Assembly: GCA_010094025.1 (NCBI GenBank)
Contig: ML991803.1
Coordinates: 62,001 to 126,000 of the forward strand
Reading direction: 5' to 3'
DNA length: 64,000 nucleotides
Source of the DNA: Viridothelium virens
Lineage: Eukaryota; Ascomycota; Dothideomycetes; Trypetheliales; Trypetheliaceae
The translations under genes were made by a program, and so were the position numbers. A model generated the notes under the pieces. It made no database searches and had not been told where the DNA came from. It was given only the letters and a program-made list of their open reading frames with translations. Below are positions 14,920-36,015 of this stretch, piece after piece (positions within the stretch are counted from its first letter, which is position 1; every line of letters starts with the position of its first letter).

Positions 14920-15876
14920 CTACCATGCATAAGAGTCTACCGTTAATGAGGTAAGAGCCCTTTCACTCTCCAATTCCGCCATATACTCGGACCCTCCGAG
15001 CTTCGAGACAAAATCGTACCACCAAAAGTCCTTCCGACAGAATCTCAGAGCAGTTGTAAACTCCCAATAATCCGGGTACCAACCCGCCGATTCCCAATCA
15101 ATGAATCCTGAAATATGACCGTTGTGGACCATGATATTGTGGTGCTTCAGGTCACCGTGGGTGAATACGATAGGATGGTGCATGGTGTCCATTCTCTTCG
15201 CACATGCAAGCTTCTCCTCGAAAGCGTCTCGGGACGAAAAACTGTGATCTGAAGCAACACAGATTAGGTCTTTGTTGAATTGGGTTTCTGATTCGCACGG
15301 CCCGATCAAGTGGTTGGGAACGCGAACACTTCTGATACCCACCCCTGTAACTGAGCAGATACGATCTCCTCCCCATGGATGAGACCACCTGCGCATTACG
15401 CGTAGAATAGACTGCAGCTCGGTAGACACAGTCTTGCGCTCCTCGTCGGTCATTTTTTTATATATCTCTCCCAGAGGTTTCCCGGGTACTCGAGTCATCA
15501 GGATTGAGACGGGAGCGTGAGGCGTGTCGGGATGTTCGCCATATGCGATGACTTTGGGCACTGGGGATCCAGCAGAACGTGCGATCTTCATAGCCGTGAC
15601 CTCCTCCAGTCGAGTGCCGTCTGACCATTTTAGAAGTAACCCGAAGGGAAGTTGCGCAATCTGATTATCGTATTCTATCCCAATCCAGCCACAGTACCGA
15701 CGAGAAAAGCGACGCAGATATGGATGAATGAGCCCGAAAACTCGACGGATAAATCGATGAGCGAGTGGTTCCGCAGGTGGAACAGACGAAGTCAAAGAAA
15801 CTGACCCCAGAGTTCGATGAGGCCAGGTGAAAGTCGGGAGTAGAATTTTGGGAATGAAACGGTAGATCCAATTCAT
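14920..15876 (-). CDS. APH-family (aminoglycoside phosphotransferase fold) kinase-like protein
   Basis: This intronless gene encodes 318 residues with the protein-kinase-like fold of the APH/choline-kinase family. Fungi carry many such proteins, mostly of unknown substrate, so antibiotic resistance should not be inferred. The start is the ATG at 15876 (MNWIYRF); the longer frame upstream begins only with a non-ATG codon. An N-terminal lobe contains LLKWSDGTRLEEVTAMKIAR, where Lys and Glu could orient ATP. The Brenner-type catalytic loop is HGDLKHHN (Asp242, Asn247). The metal-binding Asp is in GFIDWESAGWYPDYWE (Asp260), the usual fungal form of this motif. All expected catalytic residues are present, so the enzyme looks active. 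It lies tandem to and downstream of the CHAT protease gene, 563 bp away. Confidence 0.85.
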   Translation of the reverse strand: MNWIYRFIPKILLPTFTWPHRTLGSVSLTSSVPPAEPLAHRFIRRVFGLIHPYLRRFSRRYCGWIGIEYDNQIAQLPFGLLLKWSDGTRLEEVTAMKIARSAGSPVPKVIAYGEHPDTPHAPVSILMTRVPGKPLGEIYKKMTDEERKTVSTELQSILRVMRRWSHPWGGDRICSVTGVGIRSVRVPNHLIGPCESETQFNKDLICVASDHSFSSRDAFEEKLACAKRMDTMHHPIVFTHGDLKHHNIMVHNGHISGFIDWESAGWYPDYWEFTTALRFCRKDFWWYDFVSKLGGSEYMAELESERALTSLTVDSYAW

Positions 15877-16439
15877 CTGAAATCTGCTCTTAGAAAAAGT
15901 CACCACTGTAGGTGAATTTGCATATATCTCGTATAGCAACAATTGAGGTACCGAATGAGAATTTGCTAAAAGTGCGAGCCAATGCACGTGTCAAACCGAT
16001 GTACGCACGTACAGGAGCCTTCATCACGCAAAGTAGATTGATTTTGGATAAGTTGTGACGTAGGTTTTGTATTTACCAGGAAGACCGACCATCACTGGAA
16101 GCGCTCGGAGAAGAGTCATGATTTGGCTAGCTTGAGTCGCACTAGCTCCGGCTTGACCAGGTCTACCACGGGAAAATCTCTGCTGATTTCATTGCGACAC
16201 TCATCACCTGGGTGCCCATCATAAGAAGTGGCTTTGGTCGCAATCTGCACTCTCTAGAGCAGCGATCTTCGAACTGATGTAGGCGCGATGCAGGGACAAG
16301 CGATGGCACGGGTCATTAACGGCACCAAAATCGAAGCGATTATTTGTTCAATGCTGATGCCTCCAGGAGATGCTAGATCGTTCGTAGCATGCCCCTCCGA
16401 AACCATGTTGACTGTGGGGTCCTCCGCTGCAATCAACTC
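15877..16439. other. Intergenic between APH-like and CHAT genes
   Basis: This is the upstream region of the APH-like gene and the 3' flank of the CHAT gene. Nothing else was recognised. Confidence 0.5.
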
Positions 16440-19400
16440 TCACGGACCCATGTGCACGAAGCATGCCCATAGACGAGGCTCACTTAAATAGTCTCGCATC
16501 AGTGTTAACATTGCAAAATGGACCGAGAACGCCAATACGTCGTTGCTCAAGACGGTCGACTCTGTGAAGCTTTGTAGGGAGCTGTAAAACTTCTTTGCAA
16601 AGATTGGACAGATGAACTCACTGGCTGGCCACAACGTACCAACCACGTGAGGGAACCCGGCGATCTGAAAGGCATTCACAATATGCAGGTTTTCGTCAGC
16701 TAAGTTTGGGACTTGCGCGTCTGCAGTACAACAGGCAGCGAGGAATGCCAGAATAGCATTGTCAGCTGTACAGTGGAAAAGGTCGAGAACGGAAAGTTTG
16801 TCAGGCACAACGTCTTTGTTGGAGGTCTCCGACTGGGCTGCGGATCCTTGAAGCTTAGCATCGGTCATCAATACGAGATGGCTCTGCAACGGGTTTTTGG
16901 GATCGGATATGCCGTGAGTGATAAAATGGGCGAGGGAATACTTCGGGAGTTCGTGAAGCACCTCTTGAGCAGATGGATGAACAAGTGCTGTCCAATGGAT
17001 CTTGCTGTTGGCAGCTTGTATCCATTGTGTCTCCCGTTTCGCGCTCTTTAGGAACATTTTCTTCTTCCAATACGGAACATCTCGGCTCGGTCTTTCCATA
17101 CTGGTGATAAGCCCACGAAGCTCAACGCCTTCAATACCCTTAGATTTTTCGAAAGCATGATCGAGGACGCGAAAACTAGCTGCATAAGATGAAATCGCCC
17201 TTTTTGCAAGCACATCGGTACAAGGACCTTCCCAAATACCCGCAGCATGCAGTGGCAATCTCGAAAATACACCGCTGGCCATCCATTTGATTCGACAAGC
17301 TCCGAGCTGGGGTGGTTGTTCATTCAGCTTTGAATGCATTCTTTCTCTGTCAAAACCCAGTGCGTTGCAGATGGGCTCCACGACATGAAGCCATAGCTTA
17401 TAAAGCAAGCCCACCATTTTACTATTCATGAGTCTCATATCCAACGGTCCACCATCGCTTGGATGCGGATCCACTTGCGTCAGCTTGTTGTAGATGGTTC
17501 CTAGGTTTTGGAAAAGGTACGGATGTTCTGGCGGATCGCTCAGTTCGATGCTGGTTATGCGGGAGCGTGTCACGAGTATAGCGTGTGTACGATACTGAGA
17601 CGAATTCAGAGCGACGATTGCCCCGTCTCCTGCAAGGTGCTTCATCCGTGCGGTACCCAACGGGCGCAGAAAATTCTCAAATCCGGAGCGCTTTCTGATA
17701 TCTTGGATCACCTCTTGCAGCAAGGCCATTTTGTCAAGCTTCATCTTATCACGGCTCAAATATGCGTTATCCAAGGACTTTTCTGCTGATTCTCTGGCTG
17801 TGTTTGAGCTTTCAAATGCAGCAGCTCTACGTTCACAGAAAGACTCGTACAAATGTGGATGCTCGTTCTTCAGTTTTGGCAATTCTCCGATACTGTGGTA
17901 GGATGAGGATACGATCATGCCTCGGCCTTGCTCCCAGACTTCTAATGCCTTTGCCGTATCACCTACAACAAGTCCAGCAGTACAAGCACGAGCTGTTATA
18001 CCCGAGAGATCTGAGAGCATATATTGCTGGTCTTGCTCGTTTGGCGACGAGGCACAGTATATCGGGATGAGCTCTACAGCAGCTTGAAGGAAGGGCCATG
18101 CTTCGAGCCAGCGATTGCTCTCGATTAGCAGGTTGCACGCAAGATTGATTGCTTTCAGCCTTGTCGCCAGTGGCGCAGTCTTCATTCGCCAAGTCTCTAG
18201 ATACATGACAAGCGCACTGCCGAAATCTTCTGTCTCACCGGATTTTCGGTATTTGAGCGCATAAAGCACGCCAGCAGATAGGCACATTTGAGCCCACTCG
18301 TCAGACAAATGCTTTTTTGCGACCCCAAGTGCTTGATGAATGAAGTTGAGGCCCTGGGGCAGATATTGAATCTGACTGTCGTCCGCGATATAGAGGAGAA
18401 TGCAGTTGTTTGCGCCATTCAGCCATGCAGCAGGATAAGCGTCGACATCCGATGATGCCATCGCCTCTAGAAACAGTGTGTGAGCCTTTCGCAAATACTC
18501 AATCTTGTCTGTAGAGCGATAAAGACTATCGTACGTAGACGCCATATTGCTCATCATGAGACAATGAGTTGATTCAACTGATCCTACGGAGTTCAGAGCT
18601 GATTGGTAATGGCGCAAGGCCTCATGTGCATCATTTTCTTGGCCAAGCCGTTTGTATCGTGCTGTCAAAAGTAATCCTAGCTCATTTTGAAGCGTTCTCT
18701 TCGTCGTTGATGGTGCTCTCGGGACAGCTACGCCTTTTCGTGCAACTTCAATCGCTGCTTCCAAGTCCTCTAAGCTATTGGATACATTGTAGGATGTTCG
18801 AAGTAGGCGACTCAAGGTCCCGCTGAGTGCGGCAAATCGGGAGCTTTCTGCGCTTACCCTGCTGATTGCAAGATTGAGGAGCTTTTTGGCGATTTGAAGA
18901 TCTGTTATATTCTTGAAGCGAAAGAATCTCGCTTCTAGAAAGTCAACAAGGTTGCGTACGCGGTCTAGGAAAGACTCCAAAGTGACTTTGGGACTATGGA
19001 CAGCCTTGAAGCCAAGCTCGATTGCTCTGTTCAAGTCAACAACGTCCCCCAAGATTTTGTATCGAAGTGAGAGAGAGTACGAGAGGTTATGGAAGGCGCC
19101 CAAGAGATCATCGACGTCAAGTTTAACTTCCTCCTCTAACAGTTCGATTGAACGATCAAGATCCATGGGATGCCCTTGGAGCAAGAAGCGCTGACGAAGC
19201 ACGTTAGCAAGAGTATCGAGTTCTTCTTGATACCTGAGCCCATTTCGCTCCGTATTTGAGTCTAGCGCAGTAGCTGCTTGACTATAAGCCTCATCCATGA
19301 GCGGGGTATTGCGCTCCTCATCCGCCTTCGTGAGCAGACTCAAAGCGAGCTGAGAGCGTATAACCGCTCTCAAATTGGTCGGTGCTTCTAACGGTAGGGT

Positions 19401-19733
19401 CTCCAGTGCAAGACGCCGAAAATACAGCGACTTGGCGTTGTCTGTAGACGCGAGTGTCTGCTTGTTGCGGGCGGCGTAAGCATTGGCTAAATATGCAAGG
19501 CGAACCGCATGGTCTTGGAGTTTGGAACCATCGATCATTGTGTTACAGAGAAGGCGAAGATCTGTTTGTATGATCTCTTCCAAATCTTCCATTTGATGAT
19601 GTCGTTCGAACCTTGTGTACAGCAAGGCTCGAAGATCACTCCAATCCTGCCACGGATCATCGCTCGAGGGAGTACTGCGCAATTGCACTCGTGCAGCCTC
19701 AATCGCTACAGCTTCCTCGTCATGTTGATTCAT
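16440..19733 (-). CDS. TPR-CHAT caspase-like protease
   Basis: This intronless gene encodes a 1097-residue protein: a long N-terminal array of tetratricopeptide-type helical repeats (about residues 30-620) followed by a C-terminal CHAT domain (about 780-1097). CHAT is a clan CD, caspase/separase-like cysteine protease. The catalytic pair is visible as His940 in HFITHGISDP and Cys1001 in LAFLAACCTA. Typical flanking blocks are DENLHIVNAFQIAGFPHVVGTLW and the final WACFVHMGP. The dyad is intact, so the enzyme looks active. TPR arrays in such proteins usually serve as sensor or regulatory parts. The start is the first ATG in a frame with no upstream extension. It is divergent, across 232 bp, from a gasdermin-like gene, and CHAT proteases are known partners of fungal gasdermins. 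That context suggests a role in regulated cell death or allorecognition, which is inference. Confidence 0.92.
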   Translation of the reverse strand: MNQHDEEAVAIEAARVQLRSTPSSDDPWQDWSDLRALLYTRFERHHQMEDLEEIIQTDLRLLCNTMIDGSKLQDHAVRLAYLANAYAARNKQTLASTDNAKSLYFRRLALETLPLEAPTNLRAVIRSQLALSLLTKADEERNTPLMDEAYSQAATALDSNTERNGLRYQEELDTLANVLRQRFLLQGHPMDLDRSIELLEEEVKLDVDDLLGAFHNLSYSLSLRYKILGDVVDLNRAIELGFKAVHSPKVTLESFLDRVRNLVDFLEARFFRFKNITDLQIAKKLLNLAISRVSAESSRFAALSGTLSRLLRTSYNVSNSLEDLEAAIEVARKGVAVPRAPSTTKRTLQNELGLLLTARYKRLGQENDAHEALRHYQSALNSVGSVESTHCLMMSNMASTYDSLYRSTDKIEYLRKAHTLFLEAMASSDVDAYPAAWLNGANNCILLYIADDSQIQYLPQGLNFIHQALGVAKKHLSDEWAQMCLSAGVLYALKYRKSGETEDFGSALVMYLETWRMKTAPLATRLKAINLACNLLIESNRWLEAWPFLQAAVELIPIYCASSPNEQDQQYMLSDLSGITARACTAGLVVGDTAKALEVWEQGRGMIVSSSYHSIGELPKLKNEHPHLYESFCERRAAAFESSNTARESAEKSLDNAYLSRDKMKLDKMALLQEVIQDIRKRSGFENFLRPLGTARMKHLAGDGAIVALNSSQYRTHAILVTRSRITSIELSDPPEHPYLFQNLGTIYNKLTQVDPHPSDGGPLDMRLMNSKMVGLLYKLWLHVVEPICNALGFDRERMHSKLNEQPPQLGACRIKWMASGVFSRLPLHAAGIWEGPCTDVLAKRAISSYAASFRVLDHAFEKSKGIEGVELRGLITSMERPSRDVPYWKKKMFLKSAKRETQWIQAANSKIHWTALVHPSAQEVLHELPKYSLAHFITHGISDPKNPLQSHLVLMTDAKLQGSAAQSETSNKDVVPDKLSVLDLFHCTADNAILAFLAACCTADAQVPNLADENLHIVNAFQIAGFPHVVGTLWPASEFICPIFAKKFYSSLQSFTESTVLSNDVLAFSVHFAMLTLMRDYLSEPRLWACFVHMGP

Positions 19734-19965
19734 AGCGCGATCTGAACGATGAAGACTACACAGCGGGGAGCTTTAAGAGTGGTCGAAGTACAAGCACAGA
19801 GTACCGTGCAAGGGTGGAGACGAAGTCGTAGGTGAGCCACTAGAGTACTCTAGAGGTACGGGTCCGGTCCCAGCTCGCTGCAAGGCCAGAGCATTGCCTG
19901 CATTTTCCATTCTCGAAAGAGTCCTTGGTGACATAGCTTCGCAACTGCATTTGAGCGGTGAGAAG
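19734..19965. promoter_or_regulatory. Shared bidirectional promoter, CHAT protease / gasdermin-like
   Basis: Only 232 bp separate the two divergent start codons, so the genes probably share control elements. The interval contains a perfect 14-bp palindrome at 19840-19853 near its middle. No canonical TATA box is obvious. Confidence 0.7.
19840..19853. promoter_or_regulatory. 14-bp perfect palindrome CTAGAGTACTCTAG
   Basis: This is a perfectly self-complementary 14-mer, 107 bp upstream of the CHAT start and 113 bp upstream of the gasdermin-like start. It could be a binding site for a dimeric regulator acting on both genes; the binding factor is unknown. Confidence 0.45.
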
Positions 19966-20808
19966 ATGGGCAAGTCATCCATCTTCATCTCCTCCTATCC
20001 TCTCTCTTTGAAGGCGGTCTCACTCGGACGGCTCGTGAGTTTCGTCAAAAATCCAGGTCAAGATTCCTTTGACCCCACTCTTGAGCTACCCGATAAGCCA
20101 CAGGTCCTTTCGACCACGAGCGAGATCAACAACATCTCTAAGGTACTGAGCGCCTCCAACGGAGCAGGGTTAGAAGTAGCTTTGACAACCTTCGCAAGCA
20201 TCTTCTTGAAAGGCGAATCTAAGGATGTCAGACTGTTAGAGGCAAAGCAAGGCGTAGAGTACCTTCTGCTCAATGCCGACGATTGGTTTGAACGAATATG
20301 CAAGTCGGAAATGACACAGACCTGGCTCGAGCGGGCAGCGATGCGTGGAAGAAAGTCCTATCTCGTTACTGGTCTTCAGACTTTAAGTAACGTGGACATT
20401 AAAACCGACGTGACATGGAAGCTTGGCAATGGGGCCGGAGCGCAGATTCCTCTCCTTGCTGCCTCAAGCGTACCCCTGCCGACTCCGCTAGACCCTGCCG
20501 CCAAGGCAGACTACTCAGTCGAGCGCGGGTTGACCAACGCTGGCAACCTACCAGAAGAGAAAGTGTACGGTATACAATACCGTGAGATTAAGCTGAAGAA
20601 GGGAACGAGGTCGACCGTTTCAAATGCCAGTCTCAGGTCCAAGATCTGGTGGGAACAGATATGTACCGACCGCGACGCAAGCGGCATGGACATGGACGAT
20701 GAGGAGGAAGATGCTATCGAGGCTGAGCTTCTGGATGGTCTGACTGATTCCACCGAGATTCCATCTGACGTTGCGATGAATGAGGAGGAGACATATTTGC
20801 ATGCATAA
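19966..20808 (+). CDS. Gasdermin-like pore-forming protein (fungal RCD-1/HET-Q1 type)
   Basis: This intronless gene encodes 280 residues that resemble the fungal gasdermin-like family (RCD-1 of Neurospora, HET-Q1 of Podospora). These proteins kill cells by making pores in the plasma membrane after proteolytic removal of a short inhibitory C-terminus. Features I associate with the family are the N-terminal SSYPLSLKAVSLGRLV, then KNPGQD (residues 28-33), the mid-protein YLVTGLQTL (132-140) and the KVYGIQYREIKL strand (199-210). Residues about 233-280 form a very acidic tail (DMDDEEEDA and beyond) that would be the removable part. No mammalian-type large inhibitory domain is present, as expected for fungi. 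The frame is open upstream to 19894, but that codon is not ATG, so I start at 19966. The divergent CHAT protease supports the call. No similarity search was possible. Confidence 0.76.
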   Translation: MGKSSIFISSYPLSLKAVSLGRLVSFVKNPGQDSFDPTLELPDKPQVLSTTSEINNISKVLSASNGAGLEVALTTFASIFLKGESKDVRLLEAKQGVEYLLLNADDWFERICKSEMTQTWLERAAMRGRKSYLVTGLQTLSNVDIKTDVTWKLGNGAGAQIPLLAASSVPLPTPLDPAAKADYSVERGLTNAGNLPEEKVYGIQYREIKLKKGTRSTVSNASLRSKIWWEQICTDRDASGMDMDDEEEDAIEAELLDGLTDSTEIPSDVAMNEEETYLHA

Positions 20809-31310: not shown

Positions 31311-34300
31311 ATGTTGCAATGTCTTTCAGGAAGCTATGCCGCGTATTTCCTGGTCACTTACGCGTGTGGCGCTACAGCTCGTCAGTTCATTACTACGTAA
31401 AGACAAGGAAACAAATACTAATTTTTTTCGATCAGTATACCTCTCGCCAAAGGAGGGAGGATCGTCTTCGTCAATCTCAAGGAATAGTACTGAATCCATA
31501 GCCTCGGCAACCTCAGCTAGTGATCCCTGGCTCTTGACAAATTCTGTGGTGCCAAAGTCATCTACCACGAGTCTCCCCTTAGGTGCCTATATCGCCTCCG
31601 GTCTATCCGGCATTGCACCCCAAACGGTGACCCCGGTGTATTATTCTTCCACATCGACATCAAAGGCGACGACGGATACTGCTTTGAGAACTCATTCAGC
31701 GTCTCAGGAAGCTGTAGTATCAATCAGTAATGGCTTTTCAATCTCGACGGATGACACGACCCAGCCGATTGCAGCCAATATATCATCGGCTTCTACTTTT
31801 TCGCAAGTAGAAAATATTCACAATAGCAGCAATACCACGACCACTACAAGTCAGCTAAATCGAACCATCGTCTCCTCAAATCCGGGCTCCAAAGCTTCTG
31901 TGACGAACGGAATACTTACCAACAGCGCATACTATAAGGCCGCCAAAGTCTCCTCAAGTTTGAATCAGACTGATGCCATTGCGGGCCACTCCAGTAGCAC
32001 TAACTCGTCGAGAATTACTAGTACTGCACCATTTCAGTCCTGTTACTCTGTCTCGAATTCTCGCCAACCTAAGCCTGCTAATACGTCAATTACGCAAGGT
32101 CTAAGCTCCACTGGTAATGCTACTGTGGATCAATGTTGGATGCAGTGGTCGAATTACTGGGACTTTCAATCTATCTACGGCCATCTCAATTGGCTTAACT
32201 ACAGTTCGGGCCAATATGCAACAACCTATTACGCAGACACGCAAATCGCGCAATCCGCTTGCGTCCAAGTTATCACCTCTGAGTGGACAAGTAATGCGCC
32301 TTATTCAAATACAGACCTCGAGTTTATGACTGAAACCGAGATTCATACTGCTACCATCATTGCCGATGGATTCACAAGGACTATAGAAACAGACACGCAT
32401 ACGGTGATAGCACAAGAATATAAAGCCGCGACTACAATCACGCCTTTGTCGACTATCACCAACGTTGCCACCTCGACATGGACGGAATACTCTGAGACGA
32501 AGATTGCGCTTAGTAGTAAACCTTCACCAAACTGCGAGCTCCCACCTTTAGTAACACAGTGTCAGGATATCTGGAGTTCTTGGGCCTCTCACCAGCTAAT
32601 GGGCACTCCCACTATGTCTGCTCCGTCATGTGGCACCGTTGCATCTTGTCAACCATCCTGGACAACGTACGACTCAATATGGAGCTCTTATTCTTCTTTG
32701 AGAGGCATACCATCGCCTTCATGTACACAGGCATCTATCGCAGAGCCCCTCTGCAATGCCTTGCGGTCTTCATATATTGATGCCGGATTTTCAGAGAACA
32801 ATGGTGTCATTACCAGTAACGGAGCTTCTGGGTTTAGCGGGGGCTTCATGGAGAGGCCTACCGTAAGCTGGCCCTCGGTTGATCCAGAGTTTCCAGATAT
32901 GTTCTTCCTGCCGACAACGACCAGCTACCTTTCTCCCACCTGGCCAAGGTCTTCGACTCTTGCTGCTGGGTGTACTCTTGGCTGCGGTAATTGCGCCATC
33001 ACTGGTGGCACTGTACAGTTGATCCACTGGCTGCAACCTGCACCTACACCAGCTATCAAGGGAACAAGGAAATCGCATGGGACAGTCGATGGCGCTGTGG
33101 TAGCATCTACACTTGGTACTACCTTCACCTCTCCCACAATCTATGTCTCTCTTGCCGATGTTCATGCCGGTGACTCGTGTTCGGCGATCGCCAAGACGCA
33201 CTCTAACACTATCCTGCCTTTGACTAACACAAATCAGCTTTCAAGCATCTGGGCCCAATACCAAGGTCATCTAAGCACGGTGTCCTTCAATTTCACAGAT
33301 CTTAACACTCCAATCCCAGCCAGCATATACACTCGACAGCCATGGTGTGCCGCTTGGACGTCTACAATGGCCACCGAAGATCTCAATTTTGGCGCATGTA
33401 ATAGATCTGCCACGTTCGGGCGTGGTGAGAGTACGTGCTATCCCACGTGCCCACAGACTCAGCCTTTCAATCCAATTCTCGTGCTACCAACCGGGTTTCT
33501 CAAACCCATCGATGTGGCGTGGGCCTCTTGCAATCTTGATATCCGGGGGGTCTTTGATCCACCCATTGTGTTGACAGCACAGTCAGCTGCCGCTCTACCT
33601 GTGGCTGCTCCCATCACCTCCTTCATCGATCCAAGCCCACCGGCTGCTTCCGTACAATCTGCACCAATAATGCAGACTCCCGCACAGACTGCGAATGTTC
33701 CAAGTGCGACGAATGATCCGTCAGCTGGCGCTGGTCCGCTTCCAAGCCCATCTGCTTCATTGATATCCTCGTCAACAGCGGCAGCAGCTGATTCACCCGC
33801 CGGCTCAACTGAAGCTTCTGGTTTATTGGGCTCGGTTTTCCCATCGATTCTACTAAGGCCCACTTCGACAGACCAAGTTACAACCGATGTCACCAAGACC
33901 AATACTGCTCTTGACCCTTCACTGGCGGCCGAGGAAACCCGCAGCGCGTCCGATCCATTTTCAACCCAAGTTTTCTCCCAATCAGCAGCCCGTGGGCAAG
34001 CTGTATCAAGCGAGAACTTCGTCAACCCCTCTCAGTCATTTTTGAGCGCAGATCCACAAGTGCCTCCTACGCAAGACGGTGGAGGACAGTCTGCCACGGC
34101 CGATCCAGGCAGCTCAAAAGCTGTCATTGAAGGATCAACTCCACCAGCTGGAGTTTTGCCATCTGTCCCAGGCAATCCGTTATTTGCTGGAGTGGACAGC
34201 CTTGCTGTTGGGAGTAGCACTACCATTAACCTACCTATGACGAGTGGAAACGAATATTCAGCGGCAAATGGACTAGCGGGCGGCACTCCACCAGCATTAC

Positions 34301-36015
34301 CAGCAGACCCAGGATTCATCTATATCGCATCCGATGGTTACCCATCGAATATCCCAGGAGCCATCATCTCAGAGAAAATTCCGGCCGCTACCATAGCTGG
34401 GCAAGCTTTCAGTATTGGCAGTGACGACTTCAATATTGGAGGCAGTCAAACTGCACCATCTGAAGGTTTCTTAAGCGGCGATGGAATACTTACTTCGATA
34501 TTCATGCCTGTAGAGACTATTGCCGGACAAGCTATCGGTGTTGGCAAGACTGTTGTTCATGTTGGAGGCACTGATGTTGCACATTCGACTGCCACAGCTT
34601 CGGGTATCACCGATGCCAATCAGGCATCGGCTGCGGCAGTCACGATTGCCGGACAAGTGTATACGGCGGACTCGCGAAGTGGACTGATAATTGGATCAAA
34701 TACATTGAGGCCAGCAGACCCTGCTGGGACAATCGCTGGACAAGCTATCAGTATTGGTAGTGACGGGGTTATCATCGGAGGAGACCACATCGCCTACTCT
34801 GCTGTTGCAGCTAGTGCTGCTGATGGCGCCTCCCAGATCCTGACTGCAGTGATGACGAATGGTGAGCAAGTTTACACGGCAGATCCGCACAGCGCTTTGG
34901 TAGTGGGATCTAGCACACAGGAGCAGGGAGGTTATCCGGCGACGGTCGGAGGACATATTGTTAGCATTGGAAGCAACGGGATTGATATTGACGGAAGCCA
35001 TATTTCGTACTCCTCGCCTTCAGGGACTACAATGCCTGGTGTGGCGTTGACAGTTGGTTCGAAAATATTGACAATAGCTTCTGGAGACCCCTTGGTAATC
35101 GGCTCACAGACGATACAACCCGGAGATACCGCAACAGTGACTGACCAGATTGTCGATATGGGTAGTGGTGCTGGCAATCTGGGTGGAAATTCCGAGCCCA
35201 CTACGATCGCATCGACAGCTCCTCCAGAAGCGGTCTTTGGTTTTGGCTCGTCCTTACTCACCGCTACGCTAGGACAACCGGTAGCAATCGGTTCCACCAG
35301 CCTTATTGTCGGTAGTCCCGAATTTGTCGCCTCTGACATGACCTTTTCTGTGGCATCTAGCGGTGTTGTAGTTGATGGCACTATCGTTCCGTTCTCCTCT
35401 TCCACACTGCTTCCAGAGACGGAGGCGCCCCTCACAGTCTCAGGAACCGCATATACTGACAGATACCTCTCTTCAGACGTACAAGTCACGGGTGATCCGC
35501 AAGGATCCATGACGACTATGTTCATTTCTGGGGCGGCAGCAACCATTGATGGGCAGCTCGTCAGTGCGGAACCTGGTGGCCTTGAAGTGGGAACACATGA
35601 TATATCTTTTCAGTCGAATGCAGCAAATTCCGGGCAGAAGACATCATTCACAGTAAACGGACAAACATATACCGCTGTTGAATCTCTAGCTTCCTCAGGG
35701 ACTGGTAAAGTTGCTATAGTTGATGGCTCCATAATTCTACCACTCGGCATGCCCGGGACCATTAATGAGGGGCCGAGCGCCTCTGTTGGTACCACTAGCG
35801 TGGTTGGCAACGAGACATCAACAGGAGCGTTGAGCTCTGCGACGACGGCTGGCAGTTCGCCAGCTTCAACTGGAATCGAAGGCGGATCGAGTGGAGGGGT
35901 CTCTTCAGCGACAACGACCAAGTCTAGCGCGATAGTCGCCCCAAATCCAACATACACAAGAAGTCCTTTGGCATTGCTGATAGCATACTTGGCTTTCATG
36001 ATTGTGCTTAGCTGA
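31311..36015 (+). CDS. Giant Ser/Thr-rich GPI-anchored wall protein with internal repeats
   Basis: This is a 1549-residue predicted cell-surface protein. I infer exon 1 at 31311-31380, a 55-bp GT-AG intron (31381-31435) with an ACTAAT branch-site word, and exon 2 at 31436-36015. This model gives a hydrophobic leader (MLQCLSGSYAAYFLVTYAC). The unspliced frame starting at 31336 lacks any signal peptide, which is why I prefer splicing. Residues about 25-260 are Ser/Thr-rich. About 260-750 are cysteine- and tryptophan-containing segments (CWMQWSNYWDF, CQDIWSSWASH, CQPSWTTYDSIWSSY). About 1015-1440 carry roughly ten degenerate repeats of the form TIAGQ-x-hydrophobic-GSD-x-IIGG. The end (SPLALLIAYLAFMIVLS) fits a GPI signal. 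The family of such repeats is fungal and mostly uncharacterised. Adhesion or wall structure is the likely role, which is inference. Confidence 0.82.
34380..35720 (+). repeat. Degenerate protein-level tandem repeats (TIAGQ...IGG units)
   Basis: Within the giant wall protein, units of about 40-60 residues recur: AGQAFSIGSDDFNIGG, AGQAIGVGKTVVHVGG, AGQVYTADSRSGLIIG, AGQAISIGSDGVIIGG and others. Alternation of AGQ-A and AGQ-V forms suggests a two-part repeat. They are diverged at DNA level, so the expansion is not recent. Confidence 0.7.

What the first reader, a model, noticed from the sequence alone, without database searches (positions are those of the whole stretch)
16440..20808. Head-to-head TPR-CHAT protease and gasdermin-like gene: a likely cell-death module
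The sequence shows a 1097-residue TPR-CHAT protease with an intact His940/Cys1001 pair, divergent across 232 bp from a 280-residue protein with fungal gasdermin-like blocks. Published work on RCD-1 and HET-Q1 shows that fungal gasdermins are released by proteases encoded next door, including CHAT-domain ones, and bacterial gasdermins use similar pairs. My inference is that the TPR array senses a trigger, CHAT clips the acidic tail, and the pore kills the cell in allorecognition or defence. The pairing in this species, and what the TPR part senses, appear undescribed to me.
Basis: partly seen in the sequence, partly recalled or inferred. Interest (0 to 1): 0.92.

Follow-up and report, generated by a model that had tools for sequence, protein, structure and literature searches.

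The report
Fungal TPR-CHAT protease beside probable gasdermin
A fungal genome carries a caspase-like protease gene back to back with a small gene that is probably a pore-forming gasdermin, a known kind of fungal cell-suicide pair, so this is most likely a new example of something already described.

Summary
The protease half is confirmed: a 1097-residue, single-ORF TPR-CHAT protein (Pfam CHAT, E 3.5e-24). His940 and Cys1001 align with His and Cys in 13 of 13 fetched bacterial relatives.

The gasdermin half is plausible but unproven. The 280-residue protein has no Pfam, NCBIfam or PADLOC match, one weak PHROG match, and no PDB match. AlphaFold2 without homologues was unusable (pLDDT 34.2 and 31.4). 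The collections offered hold no fungal genomes. Support for gasdermin is position, size (280 aa against 278 for HET-Q1) and an acidic 5-kDa tail starting near the reported HET-Q1 cut.

The kind of pair is published. One review puts about 19% of fungal gasdermin genes near a CHAT gene. Verdict: probable new member of a known kind, low-to-moderate interest.

The parts
16440..19733 (-). TPR-CHAT cysteine protease gene, 1097 aa, one uninterrupted ORF (P0002)
   Evidence: ORF; Pfam CHAT E 3.5e-24; relatives over most of the length on actinobacterial plasmids; best coding frame
16443..17303 (-). CHAT domain, residues 811-1097, catalytic His940 and Cys1001
   Evidence: His and Cys in 13 of 13 fetched bacterial relatives
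17916..19733 (-). N-terminal TPR-type repeat region, about residues 1-606, repeat step about 45 residues
   Evidence: profile self-alignment offsets 44, 92, 136, 185, 227, 272, 317; 3 of 3 scanned bacterial relatives hit TPR_10; weak by single-sequence repeat search; no TPR model hit on the protein itself
19734..19965 (.). 232-bp shared upstream region between the two divergent genes
   Evidence: sequence
19966..20808 (+). 280-aa protein (P0001), candidate fungal gasdermin
   Evidence: ORF with ATG; best coding frame; no Pfam, NCBIfam, PADLOC or PDB match; gasdermin identity inferred
20662..20805 (+). acidic C-terminal tail of P0001, residues 233-280, 5.29 kDa, net charge -17, candidate inhibitory tail; cut site not known
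   Evidence: 18 of 48 residues Asp/Glu, reached by 0 of 100000 shuffles; because the boundary was chosen after reading, also tested as the best 48-residue window anywhere (19 acidic, 0 of 5000 shuffles); charge

Best explanation
A two-gene regulated-cell-death cassette of a fungus, probably an ascomycete. The TPR-CHAT protein is a latent sensor-protease whose repeat region recognises a trigger. On activation the CHAT cysteine protease cuts the neighbouring 280-aa protein in the linker before its acidic 40-48 residue tail (about residues 229-243). The freed 230-240 residue domain then forms gasdermin-type pores in the plasma membrane and kills the fused or infected cell. Shown here: both genes, CHAT family and intact His/Cys, TPR-type ancestry, divergent arrangement, acidic tail. 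Inferred: gasdermin fold, cleavage, pore formation, trigger and biological role.
For: CHAT E 3.5e-24; His940/Cys1001 conserved in 13 of 13 fetched relatives; TPR-CHAT homology over most of the length. P0001 is 280 aa with a 5.29-kDa acidic tail from residue 233; published HET-Q1 is 278 aa and loses about 5 kDa, 40 residues, by cleavage at F238 (PMC10989679 passages). Published clusters: about 80% of fungal gasdermin genes lie by a protease gene, about 19% by a CHAT gene (PMC10197012 section 15), and a TPR-bearing CHAT protease activates its gasdermin in P. anserina (PMC12881547 section 20). One bacterial relative of the protease lies divergent from CATRA/CATASP conflict-system genes.
Against: No sequence search places P0001 with gasdermins: 0 Pfam families at E<=10, although the Pfam library offered holds Gasdermin PF04598; 0 PDB chains at E<=10, although papers list fungal RCD-1 entries 8JYY and 8JYZ; 0 NCBIfam and 0 PADLOC. 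Two AlphaFold2 runs without homologues were unusable. RCD-1 membrane binding is attributed to positively charged amphipathic helices; in P0001 the only 18-residue windows with helical moment above 0.5 lie at 96-114 and carry net charge -2. A 232-bp divergent neighbour can arise by chance in a compact fungal genome (my judgement, not tested). No ORF of 60 aa or more in 13 fetched bacterial TPR-CHAT loci resembles P0001 (best E 2.3).
Confidence: 0.7

Rival explanations
1. The pair is functional but the small protein is not a gasdermin: it is another substrate or executioner (a different pore-former or a regulator) cut by the TPR-CHAT protease.
For: No gasdermin model or PDB match. One bacterial relative of this protease sits by CATRA/CATASP genes. 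A. fumigatus hetB has a CHAT-protein allele whose alternative encodes a 149-residue protein without predicted domains (PMC11138114 passages).
Against: Size and tail agree closely with HET-Q1; P0001 matches no Pfam model, the CATRA ones included.
Confidence: 0.15
2. Chance neighbours: an ordinary fungal TPR-CHAT protein and an unrelated small gene that happen to be divergent.
For: Only one copy of the arrangement was seen; no fungal relatives are held, so conserved linkage could not be tested.
Against: Published frequency of gasdermin genes linked to proteases in fungi; the acidic tail and size fit the cleavable type.
Confidence: 0.15

Closest known systems
Podospora anserina gasdermin with TPR-bearing CHAT protease (two-gene cluster, Clave et al. 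2022, known here through a review only)
   Same: Adjacent genes; TPR-type repeats plus CHAT protease; small putative pore-former
   Different: Activation reported there, not shown here; sequences not available for comparison
HET-Q1/HET-Q2 of P. anserina
   Same: Small protein of 278 aa against 280; about 5-kDa C-terminal piece
   Different: HET-Q2 is a serine S8 protease, and het-Q1/het-Q2 are idiomorphs at one locus rather than a divergent pair
RCD-1 of Neurospora crassa
   Same: If P0001 is a gasdermin, the same pore-forming domain family
   Different: RCD-1 lacks an inhibitory C-terminal domain and is activated by its allelic partner, not by a protease; phmmer of P0001 found no PDB chain at E<=10
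Bacterial TPR-CHAT proteins, mostly actinobacterial (26 of 31 plasmid records are Streptomyces), one beside CATRA/CATASP
   Same: Same architecture and catalytic residues; best match 25% identity over 97% of the length
   Different: No P0001-like ORF in the 13 loci fetched (12 actinobacterial, 1 Nostoc)
Aspergillus fumigatus hetB (passages)
   Same: Large CHAT protein at a heterokaryon-incompatibility locus
   Different: Idiomorphic alleles; no gasdermin shown

Membership tests
CHAT (caspase HetF associated with TPRs) proteases | CHAT domain profile match | tested here: met
   PF12770 E 3.5e-24, 86.2 bits against cut-off 24
CHAT (caspase HetF associated with TPRs) proteases | Catalytic His and Cys | tested here: met
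   His940 and Cys1001 columns hold His and Cys in 13 of 13 fetched relatives; that these are the catalytic pair is family knowledge, recalled
CHAT (caspase HetF associated with TPRs) proteases | Associated TPR repeats | tested here: met
   By homology only: 3 of 3 scanned relatives hit TPR_10 and align with the N-terminal region. The protein itself hits no TPR model, and the single-sequence repeat test was weak
Fungal gasdermins (fGSDM) | Profile or sequence similarity to gasdermin pore-forming domain | tested here: inconclusive
   No Pfam or PDB sequence hit. RCD-1 is described as a distant homologue of animal gasdermins, no fungal gasdermin was available as positive control, and sensitivity is therefore unknown
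Fungal gasdermins (fGSDM) | Gasdermin fold | tested here: inconclusive
   AlphaFold2 without homologues, pLDDT 34.2 and 31.4; unusable, so no fold search was run
Fungal gasdermins (fGSDM) | Positively charged amphipathic helices (described for RCD-1) | tested here: inconclusive
   Crude moment scan: only windows at 96-114 exceed 0.5, net charge -2. Counts mildly against, but no reliable secondary structure is at hand
Fungal gasdermins (fGSDM) | Short removable C-terminal tail (HET-Q1 type) | tested here: inconclusive
   A 48-residue acidic tail is present; whether it inhibits or is cut is untested
Fungal gasdermins (fGSDM) | Gene next to an S8 or CHAT protease gene (true of about 80%) | tested here: met
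   232 bp divergent from the CHAT gene
Fungal gasdermins (fGSDM) | Membrane binding, oligomeric pores, cell death | not testable with these tools
   Needs the bench
Heterokaryon-incompatibility (het) locus | Polymorphic alleles under balancing selection and incompatibility phenotype | not testable with these tools
   No genome of this organism is held, and no population data

The most novel reading that the evidence does not exclude
The 280-aa protein is not a gasdermin but the founder of an undescribed family of small executioners with an acidic off-switch tail, controlled by a TPR-CHAT protease. Fungal CHAT sensors would then drive more than one kind of death protein.
Probability: 0.12. Interest if true: 0.7.

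Novelty: new member of a known kind. Interest (0 to 1): 0.3.

Why it matters
If right, it adds one more compact pyroptosis-like pathway in which sensor, protease and pore-former are encoded by two neighbouring genes, with a protease whose architecture is shared with actinobacterial TPR-CHAT proteins. What such repeat sensors recognise in fungi is an acknowledged open question (PMC12881547), and a pair of uninterrupted genes is a convenient place to test it. The locus itself does not change the known picture.

Tried and rejected
Relatives of P0001: the search for related loci in genome contigs and viral contigs, which scans six exact 8-residue peptides and so sees close relatives only, matched 52 and 48 stretches, none confirmed; tblastn against plasmids at E<=10 gave no match. 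Relatives of P0002: genome contigs 11 stretches, none confirmed; viral contigs none; tblastn against plasmids gave the bacterial relatives. PDB sequence searches with P0001, its first 155 residues, P0002 and the CHAT region: no hit (limit E<=10, but 0.1 for P0002). PADLOC: no hit for either protein. PHROGs: one weak hit for P0001 (phrog_24097, E 0.055, unknown function), taken as chance. NCBIfam: P0001 none; P0002 to Csx29 TPR-CHAT (E 8e-6, 25 bits against a cut-off of 300; shared CHAT domain, not membership) and to a glutathione-transferase model (E 0.056; chance). Single-sequence repeat search in P0002 residues 1-640 gave 3 units at independent E<0.01, one of them the seed; of 20 shuffles, run for fewer rounds, 19 gave 1 and 1 gave 2: weak on its own. 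Amphipathic-helix scan of P0001: only 96-114, net negative, against an RCD-1-like basic helix. Neighbours of bacterial CHAT genes: 10 chosen ORFs scanned with Pfam, no gasdermin (2, 8). Gasdermin model PF04598 in two plasmid records: no match. Fold search was not run because both models were unusable.
Full report
The window is fungal by its genes: RNA polymerase II subunit 2, aconitase-family, ICE2 and a fungal cellulose-binding (CBM1) protein. That it is an ascomycete is my inference. No whole genome is held for it, so paralogues and relatives could not be examined.

The observation. One search lists a 1097-aa ORF at 16440-19733 (-) and an ORF containing a 280-aa ATG-initiated protein at 19966-20808 (+). 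The start codons are 232 bp apart and face away from each other. With codon usage from nine other ORFs of the window, each is the best of its six frames, and the other five frames hold stops. The longest open run in 200 base shuffles of the 2.5 kb around the small gene was 223 codons, so both ORFs exceed chance.

The protease. Pfam gives CHAT at E 3.5e-24 over residues 811-1096. Tblastn of the CHAT region finds 67 plasmid records at E<=0.01, and of the whole protein 31 at E<=1e-5, 26 of them Streptomyces; the best runs over 97% of the query at 25% identity (E 3e-51). I fetched 13 loci, mostly from the top of the lists, 12 actinobacterial and 1 Nostoc. In 13 of 13 the columns of His940 and Cys1001 hold His and Cys. 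No TPR model matches P0002 directly. Best alignments begin at residue 10 in 2 of 13 relatives and between residues 38 and 842 in the other 11; the Nostoc protein matches in the CHAT region only. The 3 of 3 relatives scanned match TPR_10 above cut-off. A 14-row profile of residues 1-640 aligns with itself at offsets 44, 92, 136, 185, 227, 272 and 317, a step of about 45 residues (E-values from self-comparison are inflated). The single-sequence repeat test was weak. I conclude it is a TPR-CHAT protein with intact catalytic residues.

The small protein. It has no family in Pfam, NCBIfam or PADLOC (limit E<=10, but HMMER's filters drop most matches above about 0.1), one weak PHROG of unknown function (E 0.055), and no PDB chain at E<=10, whole or for residues 1-155. 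No relatives were found in genome contigs, viral contigs or plasmids, the first two by a scan that sees close relatives only. AlphaFold2 without homologues failed twice, for the whole protein and for residues 1-235 (pLDDT 34.2 and 31.4). These misses do not refute it either: RCD-1 is called a distant homologue of the animal gasdermins (PMC10989679 passages), and I had no fungal gasdermin as positive control. A crude helix scan gave no basic amphipathic helix like those described for RCD-1; the only windows above 0.5 are at 96-114, net charge -2. What can be measured for it is the anatomy. The last 48 residues carry 18 Asp/Glu (0 of 100000 shuffles reach this; the most acidic 48-residue window anywhere has 19, 0 of 5000 shuffles), net -17, 5.29 kDa. 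Published HET-Q1 is 278 aa and loses 40 residues, about 5 kDa, at F238.

What is known. One review states that about 1900 fungal gasdermins are known in 400 genomes, that about 80% lie by protease genes, about 63% by S8 proteases and another 19% within 10 kb of a CHAT gene (PMC10197012 section 15). A second gives CHAT in about 17% of the linked proteases (PMC10989679 passages). A third states that in P. anserina a TPR-bearing CHAT protease activates its gasdermin (PMC12881547 section 20). The primary papers Clave 2022 and Daskalov 2020 are not held, so I rely on reviews. A CHAT gene at a het locus has been reported in A. fumigatus (PMC11138114 passages).

Mechanism. The best-supported account is a sensor-protease that cuts off the acidic tail of a neighbouring pore-former. 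CHAT family, the His/Cys pair and gene arrangement are shown; the gasdermin fold, the cut, the pore and the trigger are inferred. I give 0.7. Rivals are a functional pair with a different executioner (0.15) and chance neighbours (0.15). One bacterial relative of the protease lies divergent from CATRA/CATASP genes, and no ORF of 60 aa or more in the 13 bacterial loci resembles P0001 (best E 2.3), so a P0001-like partner is not seen in these bacteria.

Verdict. Probable new member of a known kind. Paper searches used. The kind of pairing is in print; no paper in those listings names this locus, and since the species is unknown to me I could not search for it by name.

Noticed in passing
14920-15987 (-): APH/choline-kinase-like phosphotransferase ORF (PF01636 E 1.7e-21) downstream of the CHAT gene on the same strand. 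A review mentions kinase-like domains among gasdermin-linked sensors, but a link here is speculative.
   Followed up: partly
16440-19733 and 19966-20808: Third-position G+C of the CHAT gene (0.50) is close to the neighbouring APH ORF (0.50) and lower than the small gene (0.59), RPB2 (0.60) and the transporter ORF (0.59); five genes only, no test made.
   Followed up: no
L007:647-6505: Streptomyces sp. NBC_00376 plasmid: TPR-CHAT relative divergent from CATRA (PF20269, PF20270) and CATASP (PF20271) genes, a head-to-head layout like that of the fungal pair.
   Followed up: partly
31336-36015 (+): 1559-aa ORF rich in Ser/Thr by eye, with recurring 'IAGQ...IGSDG' type units and no Pfam match at E<=0.001; may be a fungal cell-surface repeat protein.
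   Followed up: no
16440-19733 (-), P0002: The fungal TPR-CHAT protein aligns over up to 97% of its length with actinobacterial proteins at about 25% identity; ancient shared architecture or transfer between kingdoms was not tested with a tree.
   Followed up: no
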